From IMG/VR virus record IMGVR_UViG_3300030333_004442, positions 1 through 55,561 of that record: a DNA stretch of 55,561 nt, one strand, 5' to 3'. The notes beneath the pieces are model-generated. The model did not search any database and was not told where the DNA came from. It worked only from the letters and a program-made list of their open reading frames with translations. Below are positions 14,279 to 52,300 of the stretch, piece after piece. The translations under genes were made by a program, and so were the position numbers. How positions within the stretch are numbered: position 1 is the stretch's first letter; the number at the start of each line of letters is the position of its first letter. This stretch comes from a virus.

Positions 14279-17200
14279 TTACTGATTCACATATGCCATT
14301 TTCGATTTCTTGTCAATCGAAATCTGCGTATCTACACTGTCCTTCAAGCTGTCCAAATGTGAAATAAGTAGCACGGTTTTATAATACGTCCTCACAACGT
14401 CGAGGATGCGAACGAACCCCTCCATGTTCTCTTCGTCCAATGCCGTGCCCGGTTCATCCAGAATGAACACGTCACCCTTCGGCATCGAAGAAACATTGAG
14501 CAAAGCAAGGCGAATCGCCATCGCAGCTATCGTTTTTTCCGCACCCGAACCCATTTCCAACGGGCGCGGGTCAAACTTAGGATGTTTAATCAAAATGTCA
14601 AGTCTTTTTTCATCATTTTCCATAAAAACTTCAAAGTCCACAACATTTGCAAGCACTTTGGCAATTTCTTCATTGATTCTGGGAAGCTCGCGCTTGATAA
14701 CGTCCAGAGAAATACCATTACTGTGCATACAACTCATAAAAAGGTCGCTTGCAGAGTATTGTTCTCGCAAATCAGACAATTCTTGCTGCTGTGCTGTTAG
14801 ATTCTCCAGCTTCTGTTGTAAAAAGCCGTGGGAGCGATACATTTCGTGAACCTTAGACTGACATTCCTCAATTTCTCCCTTTTTAGCTCCAATATTCACT
14901 TCCATTTCAGCTTTCTGGGCAATTAATGTCTCCAAGCTCTCTATTGCCTCTCTATTTTCCTCATACAAGGCAATATCCTTCTCCAATGTTGCCGCTTCAG
15001 CCTTCAGCTTGACAATTTTCGTCTTATTCTTAGCATTTTCAACCTCAAATTTGGCATTTTCGGAAATCAATGCAGACCTTCGTTCCAAAACTTGTTGATA
15101 TTTCTCTAAGTGACTCTCGACAACCTCTGGCTCCAGCCCACTCAACTCCTTTGCAGCTTCGTTCTTCTTGCCAGATAGGTTTGTTATCTCTTCTTTGGTG
15201 ATGCCAAGACTCTCAAGTGCAGCGTAGGCATCGCGAATAAACTTGCAGTGGCTAAATTCTTCCCCGCATGGCACCTGATTGAGCAATTCAACCTTTTTTT
15301 CTTCAACCTTCTTCTTCGTTTCTGCTCTTGTAATGAGGCGACTCAAGTCATCCAAATCGCCTTGACATTCTTCTATTTTCTTCAGCTTATCTTGATACGA
15401 ACCAACGTCAAATTGCTTCTCAAAGTTATCAATCTTAGAAAGAGTTTCGATGTTCGTCTTGAGGTTCTTTCCCAAGACATAATTCCGCTCCACGTTCTCA
15501 TCAACCTCCTTGTTTACCTCGGACAAGCGAGCAGTGATTTCTTCAATATTGATAATCCTTGTCGGGGTCGCTTCGATTGTAGATACAAGTGTTCGATGTT
15601 GCTCTGTGATGGTTTCGACCTCAGCCTTTAAGACCTCACAACGCTGCTGCTGCGTGGCAGTCTCGGCAAGGGTCACCTCCAGTTTGCCGCTAAGGTCAGC
15701 GACTTCTTCTTCAAAGTCAATTTCTTCAAGACGCTTGATAGCCCCCTTCATATCCGCTGCTGAATCTTTGCACAACTTATACTTCTGTTCAAAGAATTCC
15801 AAATCCAAAAACTTAGCAAGAATTTCTTTTCGCTTTGTCGAACCTTCACCGATGAACGCAAGCGCATCAAGCTGTGACGACATGGAGGTCAACAAGAAAT
15901 CTTCCAGCGTCCCAAAATACTTTCTAATATTCTTGTCCGTGTTGTTTCGCGTCTCCCCATTCAGGGACAGCTTCTCGCCGGTCACCATATCCTCAACCCA
16001 AAAATCAAGCGTGGTCTTGGCTTCTACCGATTCTTCTCCGCGCAACTTTTTAATATACTTCTCGGCTCGCCGTTCAACAATAAACTGCTTACCCGCAATT
16101 TCGATAACAGCACGTCCGCGACCATATTCCCGGTTTTGATTGATGATATCGAGGCTCTTTCGATTTCGCTTGGAAGTAGAGTTGAAAAGCGTCCACAACA
16201 GGCTGTCGATAATGCTCGACTTCCCAGAGAAATTCTTTCCAAAAATACCAACGATGCCATCCAAATGTTCAAACTCGACCTTGTTGCCTTCCCCGTAGTT
16301 GAAAAGGTTATCAAACTCCAGAGTCTTCAAGGTCCAGTTTACATTTCTCTGGACTTCTTCTTGCGCCTCGACAATAGAGTTGTACCTACGGTTGATTTTA
16401 TAAACCTGCTCAAGAACCGAATCCTCGATTTCATAATCACTCAAATATTCTTTAATCAGCCCCTCTTGAACTGCAACGTCTCGCAAGTTTTCCTTTTGGA
16501 AGTCTCCGTCTACATCAACGCTTCCACGGTCGCCTGCTGCCCTGTTAAGGAACGTAATGGACTCAGGCTTGAATCGCTTCTTCGCAACGTCTACAGCCCG
16601 CTTCAGGCGGTCGAGAGGGATACCATAGTTTGCAACCAAGCGCAAGCGTGCCCCCGGCTGAATGTCAGTGCCTCTCGGGATTCGCCCCTTGGGTGTAAGA
16701 TTGATGGTCACAAAGGGCTTGGGATTTTCCAGCACATAATGTTCAACGGAAAAGTCATCCTTGCTCTGAATATCCCAAATCAGAAAGCCCTTGTCGTTTG
16801 ACTCACCGTGATTCTGCTGGACTGTGGAACCACAATATCGGACGCGCCCCTCTGTATCCAAAATCTGATTGGTCTTATGAATGTCACCAAGGAAGGCAAA
16901 GTCATGACCATCAAAAACCTCGATGGGGTGTTCACCATGCTCCATAACCCAGCCAGAGTCAGTAACAACACCGGACACAGAACCATGATACAAGGCAATA
17001 TTAATCTTGCTATCATCGCTGGGGCTAACCCAGTTGTCCTCGTCAAAAACACTCAAGACGTTCAGGCAATGCTTGTCGTCAATGTTGGTTTCGCCAGCGC
17101 CCTTTAACAAGTGCAAATTTGGCAAGCTCAACGCATCAATGATTGGCGTTAGCGCGTCTTGGCGACTGCTGTTTTTCAGATTGCCGTCGTGGTTACCAAG

Positions 17201-17428
17201 AATAATATACGTCGGCGCAATCGCTGCCAAGTTGGTAAAGAAATCTGCCGCCATTTGTACAAACTCGGGCGAAATCTGTGTCTTGGTGTGTGCAATGTCA
17301 CCACAATGAACAATGTAATCTACTTCCTGTTCCTTGAGAATTTCATACAACCTCTCAAAGACCTTTCGGTACTCATAGTGAAACTTCAAATTTCGGATAT
17401 GAGTATCCGCGATGTGTGCGAACTTCAT
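14279..17428 (-). CDS. gp47-gp46: Fused SbcD-SbcC (Mre11-Rad50, gp47-gp46) recombination nuclease
   Basis: One 1049-residue frame holds both subunits. Mre11/gp47 half: metallophosphatase motifs ADTH (Asp8, His10), HCGD (Asp44), GNHD (Asn79, His80), YHGS (His148) and GDIH (Asp182, His184), followed by a capping domain. A helical linker at ~320-370 leads into the Rad50/gp46 half: Walker A GIFGKNFSGKSS (394-405), a Q-loop-like MSSQLDAL, a coiled coil of ~300 residues, a hook with Cys721 and Cys728, signature EMGSGAEK (958-965), Walker B DVFILDEP (986-993), and a switch histidine (1024). In T4 the two proteins are separate and form a complex that resects DNA ends for recombination-dependent replication. 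The fusion fixes 1:1 stoichiometry. GGGAG precedes the ATG. No internal stop or frameshift is seen. Confidence 0.95.
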   Translation of the reverse strand: MKFAHIADTHIRNLKFHYEYRKVFERLYEILKEQEVDYIVHCGDIAHTKTQISPEFVQMAADFFTNLAAIAPTYIILGNHDGNLKNSSRQDALTPIIDALSLPNLHLLKGAGETNIDDKHCLNVLSVFDEDNWVSPSDDSKINIALYHGSVSGVVTDSGWVMEHGEHPIEVFDGHDFAFLGDIHKTNQILDTEGRVRYCGSTVQQNHGESNDKGFLIWDIQSKDDFSVEHYVLENPKPFVTINLTPKGRIPRGTDIQPGARLRLVANYGIPLDRLKRAVDVAKKRFKPESITFLNRAAGDRGSVDVDGDFQKENLRDVAVQEGLIKEYLSDYEIEDSVLEQVYKINRRYNSIVEAQEEVQRNVNWTLKTLEFDNLFNYGEGNKVEFEHLDGIVGIFGKNFSGKSSIIDSLLWTLFNSTSKRNRKSLDIINQNREYGRGRAVIEIAGKQFIVERRAEKYIKKLRGEESVEAKTTLDFWVEDMVTGEKLSLNGETRNNTDKNIRKYFGTLEDFLLTSMSSQLDALAFIGEGSTKRKEILAKFLDLEFFEQKYKLCKDSAADMKGAIKRLEEIDFEEEVADLSGKLEVTLAETATQQQRCEVLKAEVETITEQHRTLVSTIEATPTRIINIEEITARLSEVNKEVDENVERNYVLGKNLKTNIETLSKIDNFEKQFDVGSYQDKLKKIEECQGDLDDLSRLITRAETKKKVEEKKVELLNQVPCGEEFSHCKFIRDAYAALESLGITKEEITNLSGKKNEAAKELSGLEPEVVESHLEKYQQVLERRSALISENAKFEVENAKNKTKIVKLKAEAATLEKDIALYEENREAIESLETLIAQKAEMEVNIGAKKGEIEECQSKVHEMYRSHGFLQQKLENLTAQQQELSDLREQYSASDLFMSCMHSNGISLDVIKRELPRINEEIAKVLANVVDFEVFMENDEKRLDILIKHPKFDPRPLEMGSGAEKTIAAMAIRLALLNVSSMPKGDVFILDEPGTALDEENMEGFVRILDVVRTYYKTVLLISHLDSLKDSVDTQISIDKKSKMAYVNQ

Positions 17429-17437
17429 GTGTCTCCC

Positions 17438-18370
17438 TTATATAGATGCGATTGCTTTGACGAGGAACGAATCATTCGTCATCAAAGCAGCGGAATCCTT
17501 TCGCTTCTGGTATTCCTCTTTCGACATTTCTCCAACGTCCGTGTATGGATTAATATCTACTTTATACAATTCGATATCAAATGTCAACAACTTTTTTATC
17601 AATTTTAGTGCCTTCTTCTCGGCATCAGGGTCTAGCGCGATGTAGACCGGCGTATCATTTTCCACTACATTTTTAATAAGCCTTGAATCCTCTCTGAGTG
17701 ACGAACCCAAAATGGGCACAGCATTACCAGCAACGATGGCATCGAAGACGCCCTCAACAATCGAAAGGTCACTCTGCCAATCGACGTACAACTCATTAAA
17801 AACAATATTCCTCTTGACAGAGGGGTTCATATACTTCTTCCAGTTGCCATCATATGTGCGCCCAACAAAATAGCTCACCTTCCCATCACAGTTGAAAGAA
17901 GGGATGACGATGCGCCCTGCATATTCGCCTGACGGACAGTAGCCAATCTTCCAACGCAATATATCTTCTCGGGTGATGCCGCGCTCCATCAAATACCTGC
18001 GTGCAGGTTTCGCAGCAAGGGATGTTGCGACTGTTGCGAGCGATTTAAACTCAGATGGCAATGAAAGGGTAATCACTTCTTCTTCGTCTTCCCCGCCGAA
18101 GAACACTTCTTCAAATCGGCTGATTTCAATATCCGGTTCAAAATGTGCCCACTTCTTCTGGTGGGAATAGTTGCCGTATCGACGAACAAGCCGACGCACT
18201 GACGAGCCATGATAATCACAGACCCAGCATTTGAATTTATCCTTGTCGATGTTCACCGACATTTTCTTCTTGTGATGATTGCACTTGGGGCAGAAAAACA
18301 ACTGCTCGCCACCGGAACGGTAGCTCTCCCCAAGAATGTCTTTCAAGATGGTGAGTTTTTCTTTATACAC
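17438..18370 (-). CDS. gp61: DnaG-type primase, T4 gp61-like
   Basis: 310 residues from a GTG start at 18370 that overlaps the resolvase gene by 28 nt; the next in-frame methionine lies beyond the first zinc ligands, so the GTG is required. Zinc-binding domain: Cys27-x2-Cys30 and Cys48-x2-Cys51 (FFCPKC, CWVC). RNA polymerase core: GRIVIPSFN and FVGRTYDG near 152-174, then TOPRIM motifs SIVEGVFDA (Glu206) and YIALDPDAE (Asp247, Asp249). It makes RNA primers for lagging-strand synthesis together with a replicative helicase, which is not encoded here. The protein is short and lacks an obvious extra helicase-binding domain, as in T4 gp61 (342 residues). Placement beside the nuclease and resolvase forms a DNA-metabolism group. 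Confidence 0.88.
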   Translation of the reverse strand: MYKEKLTILKDILGESYRSGGEQLFFCPKCNHHKKKMSVNIDKDKFKCWVCDYHGSSVRRLVRRYGNYSHQKKWAHFEPDIEISRFEEVFFGGEDEEEVITLSLPSEFKSLATVATSLAAKPARRYLMERGITREDILRWKIGYCPSGEYAGRIVIPSFNCDGKVSYFVGRTYDGNWKKYMNPSVKRNIVFNELYVDWQSDLSIVEGVFDAIVAGNAVPILGSSLREDSRLIKNVVENDTPVYIALDPDAEKKALKLIKKLLTFDIELYKVDINPYTDVGEMSKEEYQKRKDSAALMTNDSFLVKAIASI

Positions 18371-18879
18371 CTATGCCCTGCCCGTGCGATTACAATACTG
18401 TCTGCCCGGTCATACGATTCGGGCTTTGGGTTTCCATACTTTGTATACATTATAACAAAATCTGGCTCGTTGTCAAGTAAAAATTGTAAAACTTTTTCTT
18501 TGGCGTTATCGCCACGCTTTATCGGGACACCAACTGTCTTTCTGGCTGAAGATGCCGAAATCATCTGTGGCTCGACCCCAAATATATTCCAGCACTGCCA
18601 TGAAACCACTCCGTTGAATCTCGACAAGGTTGAGAGCGTCTTCGCGGATGAAAATCCGCTCCTGAAGCTCTGCAAAGATTGTTCAATATAAATATAACCT
18701 ATGTCGAACCGCTTGTCAAGCTCTTTTAATTTATTTTTTACAAAATCTGCCTTGTGATACAAGGTGGGGAAATGATTCTTATTTCTGGTATCCCACGATT
18801 CACAAAAGACAATGTTATCTTCCTCATCCAACACCGTAGCACCTGTGATGGATGTGGATATATCTAACCCAAGCAGCAT
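18343..18879 (-). CDS. RuvC-like Holliday junction resolvase
   Basis: 178 residues. The RNase H-like fold is signalled by LGLDISTSITG at the N-terminus (Asp6), YIYIEQSL (Glu66) and YDRADSIVIA (Asp157, Asp160), the spacing of the four acidic residues in RuvC-type nucleases. It would cleave four-way junctions or other branched DNA so that the terminase can package linear DNA, the job that gp49 does in T4 with an unrelated fold. The ATG at 18879 overlaps the previous stop by one base (TAATG). Similar RuvC-like genes are seen in other environmental T4-like phages. Transfer from a host ruvC or from a poxvirus/phage lineage cannot be judged here. Confidence 0.85.
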   Translation of the reverse strand: MLLGLDISTSITGATVLDEEDNIVFCESWDTRNKNHFPTLYHKADFVKNKLKELDKRFDIGYIYIEQSLQSFRSGFSSAKTLSTLSRFNGVVSWQCWNIFGVEPQMISASSARKTVGVPIKRGDNAKEKVLQFLLDNEPDFVIMYTKYGNPKPESYDRADSIVIARAGHRCIKKNSPS

Positions 18880-28757: not shown

Positions 28758-29857
28758 CAGCAATCATCTCCATATGGACCGTTTGAAGTGTCACCAGAAC
28801 GTGTTGAGCTTGAATACAAGCCGCTGGTGCCTGTGCGCTCTTCACAGTCTAAGAAGCCATTGTCAAGACCACCACACTTGTTGGGGTCGGCAGCTACACC
28901 GGAATCACACAAGACTTGAGGATTGATTTCTCTATCTACACGGATATCTAAATAGTGTTCAACAAAAGTTGGGTCATAATTGTATATCTGCGGTGGAGCA
29001 GGGTCATCAACCAACACCCCGTTGACAATGTTGCTCCATCGCCTTCCAAATTTTAGTGGAATAAGTTTTTCAATTTTGCTCTGCTCAGAAGCAGCCAGAC
29101 CGGGGGTGGAAACCTTACCGGTCATGTCCACTTCTTCGATGAGAAAGACTTCAATATCAAAATTTTCTTTCAAGCAATCAGTGTTCTGTTCGTCAATCTC
29201 CAACAAGAGATGGTCGGAGGTCACTTGAATATACGAACCGTCCTCATATTGTTGAGTTGCCATCTGTAGCTCACCAGAAGTACCAGTGGAGCCAAAGCTG
29301 CCTGCCTGATGTATACCGGGCGTTTCATTACCTTCTGGGTCTGGAGGTGCCTCTGTTTTTATTTCTGTCCAACACTTCACGTTTGCAACATTTAATTGTG
29401 GAATCATTAAAGTGGGCTGTGCGCCCTGCTGGTAACGAAAGGCACCTGAGAAGCTTCCGCGCAAAGTCGTAGCCGACCACGATGGGGCATAAGTTGTTCT
29501 CGCAGTAGATTTGCCTAACGGCGCAGAGAGTGCATAGTGCTTCTCTGGTGTCTGCTGTGCCTTCTTGTCGCGGAGCCCAGTACGGTTGTTGCGAATAAGC
29601 TCGTTTATTTCAGTGACATTCGATTCTCTCCCAGAGAAAACATATTGTGGTTTAGGCGAAGGAGTCTCAGTCAAAATCCTATCTTGAGCATAGTTTTGTT
29701 CCTCTGCGGAGTCGCCAGTGTATTGCCAATCATAAGTAATGTCATCATCAAAGAAAGAATAATACACGGGTGCAAATTCGCCCTTAGAAAGCAAATGTTT
29801 CCCATACTGGGTCAACTCGATGTGCATTACTTCTTCTTTCTTATCAAAAAATGACAT
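28757..29857 (-). CDS. Virion structural protein, 366 aa, with shared N-terminal module
   Basis: The ATG at 29857 overlaps the giant gene's stop by one base (TAATG) and has GAGGAT just upstream. The N-terminus (FFDKKEEVMHIELTQYGKHL, LSKGEFAPVYYSFFDDDITY) is a conserved opening known from structural proteins of marine T4-like phages and matches that of the 319-residue protein. After a charged helix (INELIRNNRTGLRDKKAQQT) comes a beta region with several cysteines (NTDCLKENFDIEVFLIEEVD) and a C-terminus with five cysteines in the last 45 residues, ending GDDC. No enzymatic motif is evident. It follows the giant protein and may be an assembly partner, by inference. Confidence 0.65.
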   Translation of the reverse strand: MSFFDKKEEVMHIELTQYGKHLLSKGEFAPVYYSFFDDDITYDWQYTGDSAEEQNYAQDRILTETPSPKPQYVFSGRESNVTEINELIRNNRTGLRDKKAQQTPEKHYALSAPLGKSTARTTYAPSWSATTLRGSFSGAFRYQQGAQPTLMIPQLNVANVKCWTEIKTEAPPDPEGNETPGIHQAGSFGSTGTSGELQMATQQYEDGSYIQVTSDHLLLEIDEQNTDCLKENFDIEVFLIEEVDMTGKVSTPGLAASEQSKIEKLIPLKFGRRWSNIVNGVLVDDPAPPQIYNYDPTFVEHYLDIRVDREINPQVLCDSGVAADPNKCGGLDNGFLDCEERTGTSGLYSSSTRSGDTSNGPYGDDC

Positions 29858-32800
29858 TATCTATCCTCTTCTGTACCGAACGTGAATGTTGCCGGGGCTC
29901 GGCTCATGTCCTGTACGCTACTCTCCTTCACTGCACCAATCTGTCTCCGAACCTCTGAGCTAGAAATCTCATCTTGTGATGAGGTTACCTGTGGGACTTG
30001 AAGCAATTGATTTTCAAAAATATCAAGCCCAGCCTCGACCTGAATCAACTCCAGCATGGTGAAGTAATCATATGGCCAATTGTAACTATATTTGGGTGGC
30101 GTTTTACCCATTTCAAAATCAAAGGAAAATCTTCCATCGTCTGTACCGCGAGCGGTCGCCTCAAAATAATCCTCTTTCGCACGCTTCTTGACCTTGAATG
30201 TCATCCATCGCACATGCCTTGGCAAATTATTTTCTTCAAAAAAGTCAACGGGGCTCAAGTCATGGATGAGCGTCGATGAGTCATGTTCTGCGGTCACTGC
30301 AATCTTCGGTGGCAAGCCTTGCCAAATGTCTGCCAAGTCTTGCTTATCGAACCGATGATTGAATTCAAAGATGTACATGACGAACGGGTCTTCTGATGCC
30401 TCCATTGGGTATCGAACGAAATCGAATTTGGGTGGAAGGTTATATTTCTTCATGAGCTTAATCATCTTACTGATAGAAGTCTCTTGAATTTCCTGATTTG
30501 AGGTGACTCCAAACCACTGCATCGGTTTTACTGCCGGGTCGCCTGCTTCAATATTGTTCTTCTGCATGTTAAAAAGGTCTTTATTAATTTTAAAGAAATG
30601 TCTGCCGTCCACAACAATGGTTTCTGCTGTAGTGTCTGATTCTTTGTCAACAAACGGAATCATCACCACCGCTTCGGAGATTTCTTTTGATGGGGCGATT
30701 TCACCAACCTTCTGTTTTTGGGGCTGGAAGCCGCACACATCAATAAGCGAACCGTGGGCGAGAGAGTGAGACTTTGTTGCAGATGAGATTGTCGATTCTT
30801 CAATTGTCACAAACACACCTTGTGCTTCTGCCGGTATCACACCGTATGAAGACCAGATTCCCATGCCGCTGTTCTCACCTTCTGTAGTGGTATCTTTAAT
30901 CACATACCCATTCTCTGACTGGGCTATCTGCAAATCCGAATCTGACCATGCGGGTGTGAGGGCAAGCTGGGCTCGACCACTGGGTAACCCGAAGGCTCCC
31001 GCTTCAAAGTCCGACAATGCTGGCACAGCCATCGTAGAGAGTGCCGGTGCAGTGTAAAAATTCAAAATCGGGCACTCCCATTTCGTTCCGATGGTCCACA
31101 CATCGCCACTGCTGCCCTGTGAATCGGTGGCTGTCAGTGGCACAAACTTTTGTAATGACTCGTCAAGGTCATCTCGCAAGTTAGCAAGTTGAGCACGGTA
31201 TTCAATTTGTTTGATACTCGTCTTTCCGAAGAGATTCATGGATGCCGAGATTGTTGTCCGTGCCTTCCATGCCGGGGAACTCGAAATTTCGCGACTGTTA
31301 TACCAGATATCGCCATTGTCCTCTTGGGCACACTTGACAAATCGCTGCCATGCTTCAGGGGAGATGTTCGTGACTTTAGCACCAGCGAAGATTTCCTCCA
31401 ACGTAAACTTCTTTGTTATAGATGGTGTAAAAGAAATTCTTGCCGTTTGTTTACCATAAAGATAGGGAGGAACATACGGTGCTTGGGCTGGGTCGCGAAG
31501 CATCTGAGCCTCTATACTGTTCAAGCCTGCTTCGTCGTTAATCCTATAGTCGTCCAAACCTTTCCACTGGAAGGCTGGACCATAATATCTGCCCTCCATA
31601 GTGAACACGCTCGTACCTGTCTCGCCAAACGCAATCTTGTTTGGTCGCCCGAGCGCGTAAGAATCTGAATATGGGCTGGCAAGTGTGGTAAAGTTTTCTG
31701 ACTGATTCATGGAAACATTCATGTAATAGGTCTTGCCAGCTTCCATCACCTTAAACTGCGATTCTGGTTTTGATGCGAATGAGACGAGCTTGCTATCCTT
31801 CAAGAAGAAATTTGGAACCTCTGCCAAGAAGTTGTGCATAGCCATTTCAAAACGAGGGTCGCCGTTGTTCCCTTGATATTCAAAATAGGGATAACAATAA
31901 TTTCGCCAGTTGGATGCATATGCCTTACCCGTGTCGCCGCCGCCTGATTCATTACCAGCACCAACATAATATTCTGGGACCATTAGATAAATTTGGTGAG
32001 GCTTTGGTGTCACACGGATTTGATTAATATCTTCTGCGGTGTATCCACCGTACAATGTGAATGGTCCTTGTTGTGGTTTTGCTGATTCTTCCATGACCGC
32101 TACGTTGCTTCCCGTTCTCTCTGAAAATGTGCTCTCAACGCCCAAAGTCTCATCTTGCGTAAAAAGGTAAGACGCATCATTTTGAAAGGATTGAAGCCCT
32201 CCATCCCACGCGAATCCACCGGATATCGACTGAATGCCGCCACTAACAGTATCGTATCTCCTTTGGTCATTGTAGTTACCCTTCATGGTTACACCGTCTG
32301 CACTGACTTGTCTAATTCCCAACTCTGTGTCAACGCTGTATTTAGCAGAGCCCTTCCAACCCCAACCATCAATCCACTCACACAGCGCCAAGGTTCCAAG
32401 ATGGCGTGTAATCGACACAGCGCAAACATCGCCAAGGATGGCACCATCGACCATATCGGAAGCCTTCTCTGCACCACCAGTAAAGAAGCACCAAGGCTCG
32501 ACACTTCCAGCACGCATCCAATAAGATGGTGCGTCCTGCCCAGCCCCGCCAGTGTAGGGATACTCATAATCGGATAGTGAATTGCCCGTGTCGTCCGTAT
32601 TTTGGAAAGGATTGACCAAATGAAGCACCTTCCAGTTGAGGGGGATGTGCTTGACGGCTTCGGAATGAAGGCTCTGATGAATCCAGTGCTGAGGGCAACC
32701 TGCTGGTCCCTCTTCAGAATAAATATCTTCCTCATTTTCAATAAGCATCGCTGAATTAATAAACCCGCCACCACCAGCTTTTGCCATACTGGTGTGATTT

Positions 32801-35800
32801 GTATTCCCAGTATCATAGGGGCTGTAATCGTCGGTGCTGAAGCTGTCCTCGCTACAAGATGATTCAGAGGCGACACCCTCCCAAGGCTTCATTCCCAATT
32901 CAGTGATGGAGTTCGCAGCAAACCCGAAGCTGTTGCTGTCCGATGCTACCTCAGTGTGACTTAATTCCACTTGAGCCAAATCCAACCTCATCTTTGGCGG
33001 TCCAACATAAACAAGGCGAATTCGCCACGTCCCACTGTGTTGCCTTCCAACTCTGGGTGGTGCCATTGTATCGGGCTTGAACAACTCGGGCTTGTTCCAC
33101 AGATTATTCACATAGCTTGCGCCGTGGTCCTTGTAGGGGTCAAGGGTGTCGTCGGTGGTTGTGGGCGCGAGGTCATCTTTGGAAATACCAAATATCTCTG
33201 GGTAAACCGCTGGGAAAATACGAGCAACGGCGTCACCATTCCATTTGCGGTCGTGGTCCGTGCGGTCGCTCCATTTATATGAAATAAGTTGACCGGGGAT
33301 GGCAACAAAATGAATATCGGGACGTTCATGATTGATGTGGTAACACAGCTTCACGGCTATCTCTTCATTCATCTCATCAAGAGTGATTGGGTCGGCATTG
33401 GAGTACGGGGGGATGGACCACTGAGCATCGCTCTCGCCTGCGAAAGTCGATGAACCATCTTGATTAAAGCTGGGCATCCCGAAACCCTTTGGTGGTCTTT
33501 GGAAATCCACATTAACGTCCCAGTCCGAGCCGCCTATTTCCCTGTCTCTATCTCCGATGGTGACTGAATGTGAACGAATAGTGTAGTTGCCTGCCCACTC
33601 ATCATTGCCGTCTGGGTATTCGCTATCGTCGTTTTGCGCGGCAAACAACGCCTCTGGTTGCTTAAAAGTAATTTCGACACCTTCACAGTCCCATCCAGAA
33701 ATCTCAAGGTCAACATATTTAAAATCACCCTCGTCAATAGTGGAGCCCAGCGACTCCAAATTATCGCTCGACTTTGGCAGAACAGAGTCCAAAGACACCA
33801 AGCCCTCAAACGGAATTCTAATATCTGGCTCTGCACGAATAATGTATCCGTTGGCAGCATCAGCACAAGCCCCGCCTTCGCCCTGTTCGACACCTTCGGA
33901 CAAACATGCAAAAAACTTCGGCTGGGCTTTGTATAGCTTCTTTAGTTGATTTGCCTGCTGTTGGACAATATATTCCTCAGCTTCTGCGGCGTCGGCATCA
34001 CTTGTGAATTTTTCATACTCTGCAAGTAGACCTTCGTCGGGGCTGTATGGGTTGGCACGCGGACTGAACCAATTTGGAACAATAGACGAAAGCTGAACCT
34101 CTGGTCCTCTGTCGCCAAGGAGAGCATCCGTCAGCATCTTGGCGTGCCACGCCTCTGATGATAAACCGTGTATATCTTCGTTGTAAAATGGCAAAGTACA
34201 TTGTGAGTTGGGATAAACAGGCTCAAGCCCTGTGGCGTTTGTAAATGCTGGCCAATCTACTGCGATACCTGCTTTAATGGAATTGTAAAGAATACCCGGC
34301 GCGAAGAATGGTTGCATAGCTGCCTGCATTGCCTGTTCCTCAAGAAGAATGGTTGTATCAGCACCTGTGATGCTGGCTTTCATTTTCTGAGTAAACAATT
34401 CTGCAAGCTGAAGCGTTCTGTCCTGTGGGTAGAATCCACGGTACGGCATCAGCTTCTTGAGTGCGTTCACCTTGAAGCGAAGCCTGCGGCGAGCGGTGGG
34501 AGAAATCCCATCGTGGTCTTCCACAATCGCATCATAAAATTGAATTGTGTCTGTGTGGACATACGAATTGAAAAACTCATCATCCCAGTCCTCACACATC
34601 TCGCCAATGTTGATGGTCGGATGAACACCAAGACGGTGCCAGACAGCGAGTTTGCATGTCGAACACGATGCTTCAGTAGTCAACCCAATTTGCGTCTGCG
34701 AATAACTGATAGCTCCGGTGGCGGTTTTCACCGTTCCCTCTCTCATGTTTGAAACAGTAAGAACTCCCGTGGGGGCATTATTTCCCCACTCTTCTTGGGC
34801 AACACTGAGCTTGGTATAGCCACCAAGGACTTCACCATTCAAGTACCCTTCAAGCAGGTTTTTAGGTTGCGGGCGAATCCAATTAATATCAGCTTTGCTA
34901 AGAACACCAGCCCACATTGAAAATTCCATAAGCTCGCCATTAAAATACCAATACTCATCTTCCCTGCGCTTTGTTGCCAATATACGATTGTCTGTCACAT
35001 CAGCAAACACAGCCTTTCCAATCTTGTAATCGTAATTGTACATGAAGTTGTTATTGTCTGCGCTGAAATCGTTGCCACCCCAACCATATTCTTCACCCCA
35101 TGCAGCAGTCTTGCCTACGGGCACAACACTGTAAACCGTCTTTCTATAGGTGGTGTTTGTCAACGCAGAGCGGTGGATTCCATAAAGGACTTCCGAGTAA
35201 AGCTTGTTGGTCGTTTCGTCGCCATCTGGTCGGGTCTTGGAGTTTGTCAAAGTCATTTTAATTTTAGGTGGCTTGCTGCCAATCGCCGGAAGAATCTGTA
35301 AAACGACATTATTCCACTCACCCTCTGGTAAGGTCGCTGGAACCCACTTGTCGTTGTTATCGTCGCTATCACCTTGCGTATCCCGCCTGAAGAAGTGATA
35401 AATGTTCTTTTCATCCCAGTCAAAGCTTGGATGCTTGTCTATTGCATTTACGCCAAGCATGGTTTCGCGACGGTGGTCGTCGCCAGCTTGATTCATGAAG
35501 AATGTTAATCCCATGCCAAATGGATAATCGTCTCTAAGTTCTACTGGAGCAGGGAAGTTTGCGTACACGCCCCAAGCGCCCTCGGCAGAGTGAATATCTC
35601 TACGCCAGTTACCGGGTGACTTTTGGTTCTTCGGATTCACCTCAAAGTCAACCCTTTGACTTTCTTGGTTGAAGTGTGCGTTGATATATGAACCGAACAC
35701 ATAAAGCCCAACAGGAACATTGTCATAAACGGCTTGGTCAGTAGAACACCCCGTGACCTCTGGTTTAGCCCATACGGAAATTGTGATAGGCGTGCCCTTG

Positions 35801-38800
35801 GTATTGGTGGTGGCATCTGAAGCATACAACTCCAATCTGGCTTGGGAAGTCGCGCCGCTTTCAGAAGCTGCATCAGAAGGCACCCTGAGCGTATCATAGT
35901 GTCTTTTTTCCGTCATCTTCCCGAAAGGGCTAACTCCATATATGTTTGTATCATTCGCGCTCGTCGTTGTGTATTTATCCCATAAGGTTATTTGACCATG
36001 CATATACTCATCAGTTGCACCATTCATATTAAACTTCATGCACGCCAAAGCAGGGTCGGCTGTTGACTTGTCGTTGGAAAATGGTGTTATTGATTTCCAC
36101 TCGGAGAAGCTGTTTGCTTCTCTGTAGACAGGGGGCAAATCAGGGTTGCCAGTCCCGCTGGTGGTGGCGGTCAAATCGGGGTCATCATAACCAAAAATGC
36201 CGTCAGCGTCGGAGTCACCACCCTTATAGGAAGTGGTCGCGCCATCCTCGACCTCCGTCAACAACTCTTCTCCCGCAGCGAACCAACTGTGACGACCCGT
36301 TCCGTCGTCGGCTGTGCCTTGACCCCACGATACGCGACCGTCCCAAGGAGAGGACGGAAGAATCTGAGCATAGCCGCCTTCTCCCATTACTGGAATCAGC
36401 GTTGCATTGCAGTTTTCGATAGACATGTTACCACCAACATAAATCGGATTCTGGAACACATAATCAGTATATGCGCTTGGAGAATTAAAAGTCCCGCGAC
36501 CTTCGCTATTTGAAAACGCATTGTTCATTGTTTTAATTCTATTTTGTAGATATTCAAATCCGGTCGTGGGGTCATCAGAATCTACACTGAGGTCTTGCCA
36601 GCCAGAATACATCTCATCAGAGTGGGGGAACTCGCTAACTACATTCTCATATGTGCCATCAGGCGAATAAACCTTCTCACTGGGATATGTGACCTTGCCA
36701 CTCCACGCAGTTTCGTGCGTAGCATAGTGTGGCGCAACAGTGTTGTAACTGGCACCGTGTAGTGAAAGAAAGTTAAAATTCTTGGTGCGGAAATCGCCGC
36801 CATCAATCATTAAATACTTGTCCATATGTTCCGAGACACGGAACTCGGCAACGACACCATAGTTTTGTGCCATGCAGCGTGTCTCCAAGCTGAAATCAAT
36901 ATATTTGTCATACCAAGGATTCTTACCAGCCATCTCGTTGGTCTTGTAGCGCCAAGCGCCTTCTCGCTTTTCTTCTCCATGAGGATTGTAATACAGTTGC
37001 ACAACCACTTCCGGCGAAATGCATCTAGGGGATATTTCGGCGCGGGTTGCCGTTTCGATATTCACAGTGTGGTCGCTGACCACAATATCGTCGTACCCAC
37101 CACCTCCGTCGAGCGTAGCATCTGCGCCCATTTTAGGCTCGCCACCATAGAAGCCAACCTTCGTGCCGCCAACCACTTCAGACCTATAGCCATCAAAAGT
37201 CAAGCCAATTACTTCCGCATACTTTTGTGACGAATTGCTGTTCCTGTTATAATGTACCTCTGCTTTAGGACCGCCGCCACCGGTAGCCATCATATCGGGT
37301 ATCTGTAGATATTCTCTTATGCTGCCTGTAAAGCCCATGCCGATGCCACCATCAAAGTGGCTTTGTAGCGAGTAATCAAACTTCCCCAGCGCAGCTTGTA
37401 TTAGATTCGTACCGAGCTTGTCCTCAAGGTTTGAAACATCAAGATTGGCATAATTTACATAATCGGTTTGTGGCGTGAATTCACAGCTTCGATTTATAAT
37501 CCACGACATATAAGTTGGCCAACCAACATACTGAAGGTCACCTTTACATGTCCACTCCGCAGTCGCACCGGTCGCGTCCTCTCTGTCGTACACAAAGTTA
37601 TCCATTGCAAAAATACTGCGGGATTGGTTCCAGCTATCCAAAGAGGTTCCATCCTCTTCAAGCAAATAACTTGGCTTGTAAGCTGAAGTGTAGCCAATGG
37701 CGTTAACGGTTGTTGATATCGGTCCTTTAATTCTTTCAAAAACATTGTTCTTCCAGAAAATTCTCAATTGACCTGTCGGTATAGAAGAAATATCTTCTGC
37801 CGCAACATCATCCCATGAGGCGCGTGCCCTAGTTTTAAGGAGTCCAACATTTCTATTCTTCGGAAAAATATATTCTTTGTAGAAGAGCCCCACGAAATCC
37901 AGTTCAGGCTGGGTGGCGTTGAATGGTGAATATTTATCAAACAAAACATCGTAATTTTGAGATGTATCTTTTATATCGAACCCCGTCTTGTAGGACAGCT
38001 TGGGGTTCGCAAATGTCTTTAAGTTATTGCTATAGCTATGAACGGCAGTGACACCAATGTTATCAGTCTTCTCTGAAAGCATGTGCTGCATTGGCATGTT
38101 CCAAGTTGCTGCCGGTTCAATATATTTGGTATGATTGTCTGAGCGTCTGTCGTTATATCTCCAAGAACGCACCTTCTCATCGGCACCACCTTGGAAATAA
38201 ACGGTGATTTTTTTATTACCGCTATCATCCGCTATCACCAAGCCGGTCGAGGAAGCCTCAATCGGGAGTGAATGGTCGTTCGCCGTCGTCTTGATGGACG
38301 CGGCTTCTGTGAAGTAAAGGGCAGAAGAATCTGTCAGATTCCCGCTACTGGTCGCAACATCGGCAGCGGGCAAAGTTACTACAATTGAATTAAGGTTGAC
38401 AAGAGCGCCGGTTTCAACTGTTTCGATGACAACAATGTTCGACCCCTCGGTGGAGGACGCTGAAATCTTCGATGTGCCATCAATTTTGCCCAGAACATTA
38501 TAGACTTCATCAAGCTCATTAATCTTGCCTGCAATATAGTTGGCTATCGCTTGCACCGCACCATCTCCCGAGAACTGAGCAACGGGCACGGTCACCGTCC
38601 ATTCCGCAGCAGTGTCTGTCTCTTCAATCAAGGGGTCCGCTGTAATTGTGAAATCTGCTGATGGGACCGAGTTAACATAAATCTTTATCGCACCGTTAAT
38701 AGCTTCCTTCTTGTTTTCATACAGCTTGTTGCTGTCGGGGGTGTTTTGGATAGTGATGACATTTCGCTGCCTTTGTTGTCTGACAATCGGACTGTATCCA

Positions 38801-41800
38801 TTTTGAAGCATCTTCCAGCTTGCACCCTGATATGGACCATTGCGATTCAACAGCAGGGCGTTTAGTGTAGCATTGCCCGCCGCTGGCTTCTGTGTGCCCG
38901 TTCCATATTCAGCGAGTGGTCGATTTAATTCACAAGATGGGCATGAGGCTCCAATAAGATTGTTGGTCCAATCCACTGGGTCCACAACAATATAATTTCC
39001 ATAAACAAAGTCAACATCAACATTGACTGTGGTTGAGGTGCCGCCGCTGTTATATGTGATGCCGAGGGAGCCAGAAGTGAGTAGCCCCGGTGACGAAACT
39101 TCCTGACCAGCACCGGCACCGGTCAAAATCCAGTCAAGGCTTCCGCTAACTCCAATGGTCGCATTAGGATAGTCTGTAATATATCCAGACAACCTTGGGT
39201 GAAAAATTAATTTATCTGTCGAATCGCCGTCGCCGTCATTATTCCAAGGAAAAACTGTGGGAGTATAAGCAGCGCGTTCTTCATCGTCGTACTCCTGTAG
39301 CGCAGGTTGACCAGAAATATTAAAATGTACAGCAGACGAAGTAATCCAATGGTATTGCCAATCACTCTGTGGAATCTGGTGGCTAATATAAAAGTTGTCA
39401 TAGCGCCGTCTGGTTTCAACCTGCGTCGGGGAATGGAGATACATTCTTGTCAAAGGATTGCGATTGTTCTTGTGCCATGCGCCGACATTGGCAGTATTGC
39501 CGCCGAAGTCATTAGAGACGCCACCGATTGCATCTGACTCAGTTCCATGAATATAATCTTCTCTATATCCAAACTGCGCTGTGTGTTCCTTGTGCCAGAA
39601 ATTAAGATGATTTCTAACGCGAAGGTTTCTGTAATTCAACGAGTTGTATGCAGAGAATTCCTCAGCTTGAATATCAAGCGCACCTCTTGAAAGAGTTGCC
39701 GGTTCGCCGGGAGCGGAAAATCTTTCCACAAAAACATGCTCGGTTCTTCCGAAAGATTCATCTGCACTGTTCTTCGTCCTATCTGGTAGAGAGAAGTCAT
39801 ACAATCCAGTAATATAAGTTGACACAATGCTGTCTGGTGTGTATTCGGGATTCCTGACGTGCCATCGGTTATTCTGAGAGCGACCAGAGGTCTGAACCAC
39901 TTCGTAATCTCTCGTATAGTTTCCAAGCTTGGGTGTGCCGGTGTAAGTCGTATAGTTGTCTTCATTGACAGCAGTATTGATGTTTGCAATATTGAATGCT
40001 CGTTTCGCTGTGCCGTCGCGTGTCCAGCGTGCTGCTGGATGGTCGGTGTTAACATCGTGTGGGTGCTTGATTGTGTTACCGCCCGTGACCTTATAAAGTT
40101 CCGCACGGGTTGCCTCGGCATTGAGTGCGCCATCAAGGAATTTATTTAAATCAATATGCCTATGCTGGTTTCCACCTACCCACTCGGATGCGAACACACC
40201 CTGCATGGGAACTTCGTGGTCCTGACCATAAGAATCATGGTGGACGTTTCGCCAAGTAGGGCTTGCATCATTTGGGTATGCTCCGTATCGAGGGTGTGTA
40301 ATCAAAGAGCCCTTGAGCGGAGTAGTGGTACTTAAAACGGTATCAGCAAGAGTCACGATATGTGCCCGCCGCTTCTCACCTATGGGACCGTCTTGAATAG
40401 TGTATTCGTCTTGACAAATCGGGGCATCATCTTGCAGAGAAGTGATTTGAATATTGTGACCCATGCGCGTCGATGAGCGCATCATGTCATTCGGACTGGC
40501 TGGTGTTGCGTTAGCAAAGTTAGGTCCACCAGCGATTATCGGTGACTGGTCCAAGTTAAGTTTGTAGGGTCTTGACAAGCGGCGAGTCGCATAGGTGCTG
40601 CCCTCGTAATGCTTGGCAGTCTTGATATCATAAAGGGTCGGCTCGCCTTGTTCGACAAACCCGCCCGTACTAACCTCGACCATCTTGTTTTGACCAAGAA
40701 CATCACGGACTTTTGATTTGCGAATCGTTTCTCTTTCGATATCAACTGCTGTTGCTGGTAAGAAACCAAGGTCAGTGCGAATTGCACGCTCGTTCCACCA
40801 CAAACAATGGTCGGGGGAGTCGGAGCCTATACCGCCTGTAAAGTCAGTTGCCGTGACAGTCGTAACACCAGACATGTCAATGGCAGTGTTACCAGAAGCA
40901 CTAAGACCATGTTGTGTAAGGGTCATAGCACCGCCACTAGTTTCGGTGGCAGTCATGGCAAGGTCAGATGCATTGATGGCTGCTCTAATTCTATCTCCCA
41001 CGGATGCGGCGTGACCAGACGCACCACTAACCCCAATGATAACATTGTCGCCATCCTTGGTGCCATCTACAGTGGTGACGCCAGTTTTAAAAACAAAAGT
41101 GACAGCCAGCCCAGCGGCATCTGTAAGGGTAAAAGTTTCATTGTTGCTCGGATTGCCCGTGGTCGTAATTGTTCCAGTAGCTTTTGTCATACTGGTGATG
41201 GGGGCGTGTCCATGCTCCCAATCATATGTCATCTCCCGAATACCACGCAAGGTTGCTGCTGGCGGGTCTTGTTTCATTTCAAGAGTAGGAAACTTCGTCC
41301 AATACTTGCTGCGCTCAAGAAGGTGATTCTCGACCATATTACGCATTGATTCAGAGAAGTTTCCAGATGCAGGAATCAATTGTTGCATCATCAGCCCGAC
41401 AGACGAATCAAGCCACTTATAGAAAGCTACGAATTTCTCAAACGAGGGAACATTCTCCACTCGCTCATAGAACAGGCTTCTAAATTTTTGTAACGTCTTG
41501 TATTCCATGCGATAACGATGGACAGGCTGACCTATCAAATCATTAAACTCAAGAACACTTGCAAAGAGAGTAAGCATCTCTTGCGAGATGACCTGATACA
41601 TACTCTTCTCAATCGCCCAGAAATGATTAATTGGCTTGGCGTTCTTGCCAAACGTATCATCATCTTGAGTGCGAATCTCAACCATATCGTCACCGCTCAA
41701 CACCTCTGGCAAACGATGGATTGCTGAATATGTATACTCTCTGTTAATGACATTTGTGTCGTTAGCACAGGATGCAGCGTCAAACGATGCAACGCCAGTG

Positions 41801-44800
41801 TGACGATAGCCAATAAGATTAGTGAACCATCCATAACGCGCTTCGGTAATGTATGAAGCGCCGCCGCCAGAAACATCATCAATAGTAAACAAACCAGAAG
41901 CGTCGGACTGGGTATTGTTAGAGAAGTCCCAATGAAGCGCCAAAGTATCCTTCCTTGGTACGCGAATATCAGAGACTGTCCCGTCGCTCAACTCTGAAAA
42001 GAAAGCGTATGCATCGTCATTAGGATACAGCCGTCCAGTATTGGTAACATCGGTTGAGTGAATTTTAATTTCCTGAGACTCTAACTTGTCGAACCAATAC
42101 ATCAAGTCTGTAACCTTAACGTCTGAGTATAGGGTGCCCGCATTTACAGCAAAATTATCACGGTAATGACCAATGTAGAATATCTTCGGTGTTGCAATCA
42201 TTGCGCGAGCTTTCGCAACCGCAGTAGCTCCATTATAAAATGCGTTCAGCTTGAACTCATTTAGCACTTCACCAAGCTGCAACTGGACGCCATAGAAATC
42301 TATACTATATTTTGATGCAGTAGCGCCCGTAACATAATCACCGAGTGCGGCGTCAGTCGGAACAATTCTGACCGCGAAATTCCAAGTTGAGTTGTCCCAC
42401 ACATCTTTGTACTCGTCAGAAATTATTTCATGGTCACCGTCCGCGTCGGTATAAATTAATTTGAACCTTGCCGAAGTAACATCTCGCGTCGAAGAACTAT
42501 ATTCGTTCGCGCCCATAATCGCTTGAATCTGCATCCGACCAATTTGATTTGTGCCTGTTTGGTCATAAAGCTCATACGCACCTGTAAAGTTAGTTGCCGT
42601 GACAGTTGTGACGCCAGACATATCAACAGCGGTGTGTCCGGCAGTACCGAAGCCATCTTGCGTAAGCCTCACCACCCCACCAGACACTTCAGTTGCGGTC
42701 ATCGCAACGTCAGATGCGTTGATGGCAGCGATTATCCTCTCTCCCACAGCCGCAGCGGAGCCTGCTGCGCCACTGGTTCCAATGATTACGTTATCCCCGT
42801 CCTTGGTGCCGTCTGCGGTGGCGACACCAGTTTTGAAAACAAACGTGACAGCTAACCCAGCAGCATCTGTAAGGACAAATGTTTCATCATTTGAAGGGTT
42901 GCCTGTGGTGGTAATTGTTGCAGTAGCACAAACATGGTTTGCCTCCTTGCAACCAAAGAGAGAGATTGTATTAAACCCTTTATGATAAAATGATGGATGG
43001 TCTGTGTCAAGCTGGAGCGGAAAAATAACTTGGGCAGTCATAGTTGTTGATAACAATTTTGCTTGGTCGGTCGTAACGCCAGCCACATAGCCGCGCTCAT
43101 CTGAACTTGAAGCATATACATCTTTAGAAAATGCTACACCGTCCTTACGGTCAACATGATTAAAATCAATATAATTTTTCTTGACCGATGAGTTAGTGCG
43201 TCTGCCGTCCAGAGTATAGTCTACCCCGTCAGCATAAAGATTAAGCTTGACAAGCTCATCATCAACCCCGAAACAACGGATTAAATTTCGGAATGATTTC
43301 TCTGTTCCCTTTGTCTTATAAATGTATGAAATGTTGTTATAGATGTTTTGATAGATTACGTTTTTAATATCTTGAATCCGATTCTCAAACATATCTTGTT
43401 CGCCGCGTGACACAATTTCTTCAAGCGATGATGCCTCGCTAAAAATATCAACCACATCGAAGCCGACCGAACGGAGCAACTGTTTTGCAAAAAAGACAGG
43501 TTTTGTCTGTGAATCACCAAGGTCAAAATATTTTGAGTCACGAATCTCTCCAAGCATATCAATTTGACTATGGATGGTGTCAAGATAACTTGCCAAAGTC
43601 TGAACAAGAGTTTTGATGACCATGCTGTCATTGTCTTCTTCCAAAATCCACCCCGGCATCGTATGATAAAAGGATGCGTTATTTTGGTTATCCCACATCG
43701 AACCAGACAACATCAAATTTGTTTTAAGGGTTTCAATTTCAGTATGAGTCGCATACATGGTGGGGTCTTTAGGTTCAGTGACGCCCATCTCAATAACCTT
43801 TGTGGACTCATCCATTGCTGATGTTGTTACTCGGACGGCAGTAGAGTAGTTACTGATTGTTCCATTAGAAATCCGACCAGAATAATCTAAGCACTGTGCA
43901 TCTGTTGTAGTCGGCGTGGTGTCGTCGTAAACCCCCTCGTTAAACTTAAAATAAACCCCCAAGTCAACATTAATGCCAGCGTCTTTGTCGTACTTTGTAT
44001 TGTCAGTGTTTGTACCACCAAAGCAGGGAGTGAACCAATAGCGCCCAATCTCTTTTGCGTTCCGAGTCTTTTTCCAATATCTAAACTCGTCCAGATACAA
44101 GCCTTTTGCACCGCCATCGCCGTCAGTAAGAGCAGCAGGACTGCTATTCAAAGGCTTCGTTCTCAAAGCGTTGATGTTGGCTACGAACCCCTCTTGTGAA
44201 ATAGTTGAGGTAATCTTATTACCTGCTGTAACAGTTGTAGAATATGTACCATCAATAAAGAGGTCAATTTTAATTCCCGAATCTGTATTGGAAACGGCAA
44301 AGGCATAGTGATGCCAGTTCTGCATCCACGTTGCACCACTCGTTGCACCCATCGTATCCAAGGTTGCAGTTGGAATCGTTAGCCCAGCCTCTTCGACGCC
44401 CTCTGCGGCATTACCGTATTTGTATGTAACATGGAAGTGCGTGCCAGCAGACGACGGTGCGCCGGGTACTGAGATTGTAAATCGGGTGTAATTTGCGGCA
44501 GTGTGTGCTGCGCCGTTCCACAAGTCAAACAAACACACCGATTGATTAGTCGCAAGGAGCGCGTCTCTTTTAGCCCAAAACTCAATCGTGTTTCCGTAGG
44601 ATGGGTTGATGCCAAGATTTGATTCTCGGAACATTTCATCGTCCCAAATATTAGCTCGACCACCTTTAGGCGGGAACTGCTTGCTCAACTCATACTCATC
44701 ATCTTCCTGAACATCTGGGTCTTTGTGAGGACCACCTTTAATAGTGATGTGCTGGCCAGTATTGGCAGCATAACGATACCAAACCCCACTTCCCGTGTCT

Positions 44801-49345: not shown

Positions 49346-52300
49346 TTAATCCTCGTCCTTTAACACCACAGTAATGGGCTTGAACTCTGGGATGGTGTCG
49401 GAGTCCTTGAGTTTGAGTGTGATGGTTGCTCCCGACAAATCAATGCCTTCGCTACCATCTGGCGCTGACCAGTCAACAGCACCTCCGTCAATAAAGCTGT
49501 CGGGGAGCGAGAAATTAGACACATTTTGCTGAACCCATGCATTGCTCAAGTCGTATGAAAGGGTTCCTTGTTGGGCATCCCATTCACTTGAGCCATCCGT
49601 AGAGTCTTCTTCGCATGTGTCGGGTGGAGTAAGGGACACAGGTTGACCCACCCCAAGCGCACTCAATTGGCTATTGGTTTCATCTGCTTGGTCACCATCT
49701 CCGTCTTTTGTTCGCTTAAACAAGCCAAGCCCAAGGGCGTGATAGATAATAGAAACGGGACCAAGTATCGGACCAATTGGAGCGAAGGGGAAGATGTTTG
49801 CTGGGAGAATCATAAATGACCATGCCAGAGTATTGATGTTCACACCGCCCATCTTAGAAACCATCATCAGCTTATGTGCCAACGAAATATTCGGGTCATG
49901 CTTCTCAGCCCATCGCTTGAACATCTTCTGTAAAGCCTCTGCTGTTGCTTTCGCCAACAATTCTAATCCAAGTCCCTTGACCGGCTGACCCCATCCCACG
50001 GGCATGTTATAATTCCATGAGCTATCACCTACTGGCATATCCTTTAGACCAAACTCATTCTGCATCATCTTTTCTAATCCTGCAAGCCCGCCCACTGCTT
50101 CTAACGCTGGGTCTTTCTGCTTGTAATCTCCCTTAGAATTGATAGCAAAGAAAACTGTGCGGAGCCTATCTTTTGTATCTGTCATCGCGGTTGCAACTTC
50201 TTGTTTTGATGAAGTAGCTTGAAAACAATAGAGAGATAAGATGCTCTGCATTCTTGATATTGGAAAAATGTACTTAATAAAAGCTTTCCACTCATCCGAG
50301 GCTAACATTGATGCCTGCAAGTCTGTGACGGATACTGATGCGGGGGAGTCCTCAAAGGAAACATCTGGACCTATAAATCCAATAGGGCTCATCGAAAAAT
50401 TATAATCAAGGATGGGAACCGGATTTGTCTCTTTGATAAGGTATGCCTTAGCCACACCCGTTCCGCTCTGCCACCCGGTCCCTGCGGAATTCGCCGTTCC
50501 AAACTTCAAGGTGCTAGACGACCTCACCGTTTCTAAAACTTTAAATGCCTTTGTTTTTATCGCTGTTTCCTTTGTCAGCCCCAACCGTACTGTCTCCCCT
50601 GAGCCGTCAGGTGTTGCGCTGGCTCCGGTCACCATATTGAAATCACCGTTAGCGGCAGTGTTAAAAGCCTCGTCCATTGAATAGCTCATAGACGCTTCCC
50701 ACGCTGCATCAAATTTTTCAGCATCGGTCGGGTCAAAATCTGCAAAGGCTCCAGCACTAGCACCGACGGAGGCATCAGTCTGTGATAGAGTCACCGGAAT
50801 AAGATTAGTCTCTGTTGTGGGGGGCAGATACATAATCCTCATTCCACGCTTGACTGCTCGGACTGCGCTTTTGACCTCGCCACCGTCGATATCTATAGTC
50901 ATGCCCGACATGCCATTCATTGTAACATCTTCCGGCAAGTCATTGTCAAGTGCCGCATAATCTTCATCACTCACTACGCCGTAGTAGCGATAATAACTTG
51001 CATCGGAATCATCACTATAGGCGTGCCCCCTTCCGCTCCACTTTTCAGTCTCTCCCATTGAGTCATCCCACCAAGACGGCTTTGTGTCCCAGTCTTCAAG
51101 TAAATAATAATACTCCACATAAAGATTGCCATTGGACCAATCAATGTCTGATAATTGGCGACCGTCAACGCTTGTAGTTGTCTCCGACCCAGAAAGACGG
51201 TCTGCATAATCGGAGGTATCATCAGCGAAACCCTCCGTTCTTAATGAAAGTGATGACGCATTACTGGCGTAAGTTACAACCGTTTCATCACCCAGAGTCA
51301 CCGTGCTGCCGCCTTCAGCAGCGCCCTTATGTGACTTCGATAAGTCAGCGCCACCTTTCATAAAAAATTTGTTTCCCATCTTCCCATAATCAGCGATTGA
51401 AATCTCTGGCAAATAATCATTGAGAAACATTTCTTCAATATCTGTTGTGTCAGAAGCCGCAACAAGATTTTCCATTTGGGTCATGACTGTCGAATAGGCT
51501 TTTTCAATTTGTTGACCAACAGCCATTACTTCAGATACTTCACCACCGGGCACTTCGGGGTCTTGTATTTCCACATCGTCTGGCTTCTCATACATTCTCA
51601 CGCATTCTGCGATGAAGTCATCCATATATGTTCCATGTGGTCGCGCTGCCTTACGTTCACCAGTCGGCATCGTAACATAATTCGGCATATCATATGCCGC
51701 CATGTCAGCCAAAATAAACCCCGCAACGTGATTGATGTAAGCCTCGTCTGGTTCATCTGGCATTTTAAAAATAGAATTTGAAAAGAGCCCTCTAAGATAA
51801 TGGTCAGCCATGTAGGTCTGGACAATGGTTTCAACGGCGACCTTCATCAATTCCTTTTCAGTGTCAGATAAATCTGCTGCTGGCGAGCCATCTGTGGGTC
51901 TGCTAAAATCAACGCACTGATTGTTTTTAATATTTTCCTTCATGCACTTCTTTTTTTGTTGCAAGCCGAGAGGGTGCGGGCTAACCCCGTCAACCTGTTG
52001 TTGGGCTGTGGGCTCTGGGTCAAGCTCAAGGAATTCCACAACTGGTGTGGAAGAATTCGTTCCGCTTCTTCCAGAGGCAGATGAAGAAGTGATGTTCTGA
52101 AAATAAGGACCAGCAGCAATTCGATTAGCAATGTATGCAAATATATCGCGGCTCAATTCACTGTAGTACCCATCAGTGCTGGCACATGCGGCATACACAA
52201 GGTGAACGTGGGATATGGAGGCTCCCGCATCCATCCAACGATTGTAGACCAAGCTCGCAAACCGCTGTTGCGGTGCGGAAGCACTAGCGTCGGTTTCGTA

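What the first reader, a model, noticed from the sequence alone, without database searches (positions are those of the whole stretch)
14279..17428. SbcD and SbcC (Mre11 and Rad50) fused into one polypeptide
All Mre11 phosphoesterase motifs are followed in the same frame by a complete Rad50 ATPase with coiled coil. In T4 and in bacteria these are two genes. A fused nuclease-ATPase fixes stoichiometry and constrains how the Mre11 dimer sits on the Rad50 heads.
Basis: seen in the sequence. Interest (0 to 1): 0.7.

Follow-up and report, generated by a model that had tools for sequence, protein, structure and literature searches.

The report
Phage-encoded fused Mre11-Rad50 DNA-end nuclease
A T4-like environmental phage makes the DNA-end-trimming nuclease Mre11 and its motor partner Rad50 as one protein; the fusion is real and conserved in many aquatic phages, but fusions of this kind were described in 2011, so it is a new example of a known architecture.

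Summary
Window 17428-14279 on the minus strand is one 1049-codon frame: a complete Mre11/SbcD nuclease (aa 1-356, with the Rad50-binding helix-loop-helix), a ~7-residue linker, and a complete Rad50/SbcC ATPase with coiled coil and zinc-hook cysteines (aa 364-1049). It is not an assembly error. All 98 viral loci fetched keep one frame (89 closed, 9 cut by contig ends), and codons 331-395 are under purifying selection (dN/dS about 0.03). Twelve long relatives (141-206 kb) and Microcystis phage Mel-JY01 carry only the fused version. Novelty is low. Mre11/Rad50 fusions in Mimivirus, a Bacillus phage, plasmids, bacteria and eukaryotes, with abundant aquatic viral homologues near primase genes, were published in 2011 (PMC3175470), and fused proteins also occur in Xanthomonas and Rhizobium phages. 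Trees reject one fusion event for the sampled proteins (p-AU 0.005 and 0.007). Most likely it works as a T4 gp46/47-type end-resection nuclease for recombination-dependent replication, beside primase and RuvC-like genes. Less expected is that the hook is usually C-x6-C rather than CXXC and switches type at least 15 times among relatives whose heads can be over 90% identical.

The parts
14279..17428 (-). Fused Mre11-Rad50 (SbcD-SbcC) gene, 1049 aa plus stop
16529..17428 (-). Mre11-like phosphoesterase and capping domain, aa 1-300 (D8, H10, D44, N79, H80, H148, D182, H184)
   Evidence: Pfam PF00149; column occupancy in 103 rows; AF2 model
16361..16477 (-). Rad50-binding helix-loop-helix of Mre11, aa 318-356
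   Evidence: two helices 318-332 and 336-356 in the AF2 model; conserved LRD..VQ..LI motif
16340..16360 (-). Junction, aa 357-363 (about 7 residues)
   Evidence: AF2 secondary structure, pLDDT about 87-90; dN/dS about 0.03 over codons 331-395
15749..16339 (-). Rad50 N-lobe, aa 364-560, with Walker A (K403, S404) and Q-loop (Q519)
14759..15748 (-). Antiparallel coiled coil, aa 561-890
   Evidence: AF2 helices between 544 and 901
15233..15274 (-). Hook apex aa 719-732, around VPCGEEFSHCKFIR (C721-x6-C728)
14282..14758 (-). Rad50 C-lobe, aa 891-1049: signature MGSGAEK, Walker B FILDE (D991, E992), D-loop D998, H1024
17438..18370 (-). Primase-like gene (CHC2 zinc finger, DNAG_N) immediately upstream
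   Evidence: found upstream in 83 of 88 eligible loci
18343..18879 (-). RuvC-like Holliday junction resolvase
   Evidence: phrog_159 E 2e-6; found in 69 of 88 eligible loci

Best explanation
This is the phage's only Mre11-Rad50 (gp47/gp46-type) complex, made as a single polypeptide. Two copies should pair through the Mre11 domains, the ATP-sandwiched Rad50 heads and, at the far end of the coiled coil, the zinc-hook cysteines. ATP binding and hydrolysis would open and close the nuclease to resect DNA ends (and possibly cut hairpins) for recombination-dependent replication and repair, together with the neighbouring primase-like and RuvC-like proteins. Shown here: one frame, both sets of motifs, selection on the junction, the conserved neighbourhood, and no second copy in long relatives. 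Inferred from the families: the activity, the dimer and the pathway.
For: Domain hits in order. Nuclease residues D8, H10, D44, N79, H80, H148, H184 and ATPase residues K403, S404, Q519, S961, G962, E964, D991, E992, D998 present in essentially all of 103 aligned proteins. AF2 model, mean pLDDT 84.5 (pTM 0.51), with the Mre11 helix-loop-helix running into the Rad50 N-lobe over about 7 residues. PDB fold matches to Mre11-Rad50 and SbcCD. The fused gene is the only convincing SbcC-type and SbcD-type match in 12 long relatives and Mel-JY01; a few have weak extra hits at E 1e-6 or worse. Purifying selection at the junction. Primase upstream in 83/88 and RuvC in 69/88 loci.
Against: No activity was tested. 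The metal-ligand His of GHxH is Asp (103 of 103), so the nuclease could differ in metal use or rate. pTM is only 0.51, so domain placement in the model is unsure. Window and relatives may be fragments, so absence of a separate copy is not fully proven.
Confidence: 0.88

Rival explanations
1. The fusion is a sequencing or assembly error that hides a stop/start pair.
For: Nothing found; the window is an environmental virus contig.
Against: 98 viral loci from many assemblies all keep one frame; junction codons evolve under purifying selection; cultured Mel-JY01 has the same architecture.
Confidence: 0.01
2. The gene gives both the fused protein and a separate Rad50 by internal initiation or cleavage, tuning stoichiometry.
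For: In-frame TTG codons at aa 315 (with a weak AGGA-like site upstream), 329 and 367.
Against: No ATG or conserved start in the junction and no ribosome-binding site at TTG 367; continuous confident structure across the junction.
Confidence: 0.05
3. The fused protein acts mainly in something other than end resection, such as host DNA degradation or attack on competing phages or plasmids.
For: T4 gp46/47 is annotated as required for recombination and host-DNA degradation; SMC/Rad50-like complexes serve in defence (PMC10586767, abstract only).
Against: It is the only MR gene found in long relatives and sits beside primase and RuvC genes, which points to the phage's own replication and recombination.
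Confidence: 0.08

Closest known systems
Mimivirus R555 and its relatives in giant viruses (Yoshida, Claverie, Ogata 2011, PMC3175470)
   Same: Mre11 then Rad50 in one chain; the same His-to-Asp change in the last nuclease motif; full-length structural matches to the Tupanvirus, Harvfovirus and Yasminevirus proteins; aquatic viral homologues near primase genes.
   Different: R555 is longer (1351 aa) and from a giant virus of amoebae; the window protein is 1049 aa from a T4-like phage (portal, terminase). R555 itself was not aligned here.
Fused protein of Microcystis phage Mel-JY01 (WWT39521.1, annotated 'AAA domain containing protein')
   Same: 31% identical over 99% of the length; primase-like gene just upstream; groups with the window in the Rad50 tree.
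   Different: CXXC hook (CKHC) rather than C-x6-C.
Bacteriophage T4 gp47/gp46
   Same: The same two enzymes and the likely same role in recombination-dependent replication.
   Different: Two genes separated by two small ORFs, GHxH nuclease motif, CPTC hook, shorter coiled coil.
Xanthomonas phage XacN1 ORF305 and Rhizobium phage RHph_Y65 EVB97_240
   Same: Single fused genes of 1099 and 959 aa with both domain sets.
   Different: Elsewhere in the trees: XacN1 with T4-type proteins (GHFH motif), RHph_Y65 on its own long branch; one fusion event for all is rejected.
E. coli SbcCD
   Same: Homologous domains and mechanism.
   Different: Two genes, GHIH nuclease motif, CPLC hook.

Membership tests
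Mre11/SbcD nuclease | Calcineurin-like phosphoesterase motifs with metal ligands | tested here: met
   D8, H10, D44, N79, H80, H148, H184 conserved; GHxH is GDIH, a change also reported for R555 and seen in unfused PSTCR5 as GDLH
Mre11/SbcD nuclease | C-terminal Rad50-binding helix-loop-helix | tested here: met
   helices 318-332 and 336-356 in the AF2 model; binding itself not tested
Rad50/SbcC ATPase | Walker A, Q-loop, ABC signature, Walker B, D-loop on two lobes joined by an antiparallel coiled coil | tested here: met
Rad50/SbcC ATPase | CXXC zinc hook at the coiled-coil apex | tested here: inconclusive
   two Cys at the apex but spaced C-x6-C in the window protein; relatives have CxxC, C-x7-C, C-x3-C or C-x-C; zinc binding not testable here
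Mre11/Rad50 fusion proteins (2011) | Both domains in one frame, Mre11 first | tested here: met
Mre11/Rad50 fusion proteins (2011) | Only MR version in the virus (as reported for Mimivirus and the Bacillus phage) | tested here: met
   12 long relatives and Mel-JY01; the window has a single copy but is a 55.6 kb record
Mre11-Rad50 complex | ATP-stimulated nuclease activity on DNA ends | not testable with these tools
   needs purified protein

The most novel reading that the evidence does not exclude
In this phage family the zinc hook is an exchangeable module that decides which MR proteins can pair. The apex switches between a C-x6-C type (VPCGxxFxxCKFIxDA), C-x7-C, HEYDPDCxxC and shorter CxxC or CxC forms, at least 15 times on the tree, sometimes between proteins whose heads are over 90% identical. 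This would stop mixed dimers with co-infecting relatives.
Probability: 0.2. Interest if true: 0.55.

Novelty: new member of a known kind. Interest (0 to 1): 0.27.

Why it matters
It adds a large, single-frame phage family to the known Mre11-Rad50 fusions and gives contig-scale support to the 2011 suggestion that the abundant aquatic homologues belong to phages. A fused, self-stoichiometric enzyme of about 120 kDa could be a handy system for structural work on how Mre11 sits on Rad50. The variable hook is a natural experiment on what the Rad50 hook needs.

Tried and rejected
Assembly error: rejected. Internal start for a separate Rad50: no good candidate. One fusion event for all sampled fused phage proteins: rejected (p-AU 0.005 on Mre11, 0.007 on Rad50), though long branches weaken the Mre11 tree. 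Rfam intron inside the interrupted huge-phage gene L002: no convincing hit. Bacillus phage 0305phi8-36 could not be fetched. Mimivirus R555 was not compared directly; I relied on the paper and on giant-virus relatives in the fold search. GDIH is not a mark of fusion, because unfused PSTCR5 has GDLH and fused XacN1 has GHFH. C-x6/7-C hooks are not unique to fused proteins: Moorella phage MTATph1's separate SbcC has C-x7-C. No paper found on hook dimerization specificity in phages.

Full report
Observation. Window 17428-14279 (minus strand) encodes one 1049-aa protein. Pfam places a calcineurin-like phosphoesterase at aa 1-184 and Rad50-type ATPase matches from about aa 367 to 1041; PHROGs gives the SbcD-like family from aa 1 to 361 and the SbcC-like family over the rest.

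It is real. Of 98 viral loci fetched (L005-L026, L033-L108), 89 are closed single ORFs over 950 aa and the other 9 are cut by a contig end; none is split by a stop or frameshift at the junction. Loci were ranked by match to the full-length query, so this says nothing about how common unfused versions are. Compared with the closest relative L005 (86% identical), junction codons 331-395 show dN 0.029 and dS 0.88. No ATG lies in the junction.

Anatomy. The AlphaFold2 model from 84 family members has mean pLDDT 84.5 and pTM 0.51. Helices 318-332 and 336-356 match the Rad50-binding helix-loop-helix of Mre11, about 7 residues follow, and Rad50 begins at strand 364-373. The 2011 paper estimated that a linker of 9-12 residues would span Mre11's C-terminus and Rad50's N-terminus in the T. 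maritima complex, so the geometry is roughly as expected. All catalytic columns checked are conserved in essentially all 103 aligned rows, except that the canonical GHxH motif is GDxH throughout. Best fold matches are giant-virus proteins of 969-1389 aa (Tupanvirus E 5e-63, Harvfovirus, Yasminevirus, Catovirus) and phage proteins of 1009-1318 aa from Tenacibaculum and Listeria phages, and solved Mre11-Rad50/SbcCD structures.

Context. A T4-type portal and terminase (nearest to Flavobacterium phage immuto, Mel-JY01 and huge phage LR756508) mark a T4-like phage. A primase-like gene lies 9 bases upstream and a RuvC-like gene before that. Primase is found upstream in 83 of 88 loci with room for it and RuvC in 69. 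In 12 long relatives (141-206 kb) and Mel-JY01 the fused gene is the only convincing SbcC or SbcD match. Flavobacterium phage immuto, the nearest by terminase, has no match at all.

What is known. Yoshida, Claverie and Ogata (2011, PMC3175470) described fusions in Mimivirus, Bacillus phage 0305phi8-36, C. kluyveri plasmids, Deferribacter and several eukaryotes. They noted that R555 homologues are abundant in aquatic viral fractions and may well belong to phages, with primases among the neighbours. The window fits that description. Annotated isolates with single fused genes include Mel-JY01, XacN1 and RHph_Y65. In trees the window family groups with Mel-JY01, two huge phages and a MAG contig (96/97 on Rad50; weak on Mre11, where holding them together is not rejected, p-AU 0.40), while XacN1 falls with T4-type proteins and RHph_Y65 apart. 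Holding all fused proteins together is rejected (p-AU 0.005 and 0.007), in line with the paper's recurrent-fusion view.

Hook. The window protein has C-x6-C at the hook apex. Among 84 proteins the types are C-x6-C (62), HxxxxxCxxC (9), C-x7-C (7), other CxxC (3), CxC (2) and C-x3-C (1); the tree, built without the hook columns, needs at least 15 changes. In the pair L067/L090 the head segments are 92-99% identical while the hook is 24%. The coiled coil also drifts fast where the hook is kept (P0001/L005: hook 93%, coil segments 52-80%), so part of this is ordinary coil divergence; replacement of the apex by recombination is an inference. A review-type source describes CXXC as highly conserved (PMC9569753).

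Verdict. A genuine, conserved, probably functional phage Mre11-Rad50 fusion of a kind known since 2011. The hook diversity is the part a specialist might not expect.

Noticed in passing
L102 6959-7896; L104 4164-5068; L073 8180-8353: GIY-YIG homing endonuclease genes sit right after the fused gene in L102 and L104, followed by a displaced extra copy of its last ~60 codons (aa 987-1047, from Walker B on); L073 has the displaced copy alone. This looks like an endonuclease insertion that brought its own replacement 3' end.
   Followed up: partly
L002 3944-8169 (huge phage LR756508): The fused gene is interrupted just after the nuclease motif GDIHKRQ by about 1 kb holding an HNH/TnsA-like endonuclease ORF; no Rfam intron was found, so intron, other insertion or split gene is open.
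   Followed up: partly
L111 (CP070664.1, 'WOR-3 bacterium' chromosome): A 698-aa truncated relative 60% identical to the window protein over aa 2-626 in a 2.8 Mb MAG chromosome: a prophage remnant, frameshift or mis-joined phage contig.
   Followed up: no
window 29857-45171 and 49346-55453, minus strand: ORFs of 5104 and 2035 aa; Pfam finds nothing in the C-terminal half of the first or in the second, and PHROGs nothing in the second.
   Followed up: no
MW353177.1 (Flavobacterium phage immuto, locus L127): The nearest isolate by terminase (46%) has no SbcC- or SbcD-type match in its whole 160 kb genome.
   Followed up: partly
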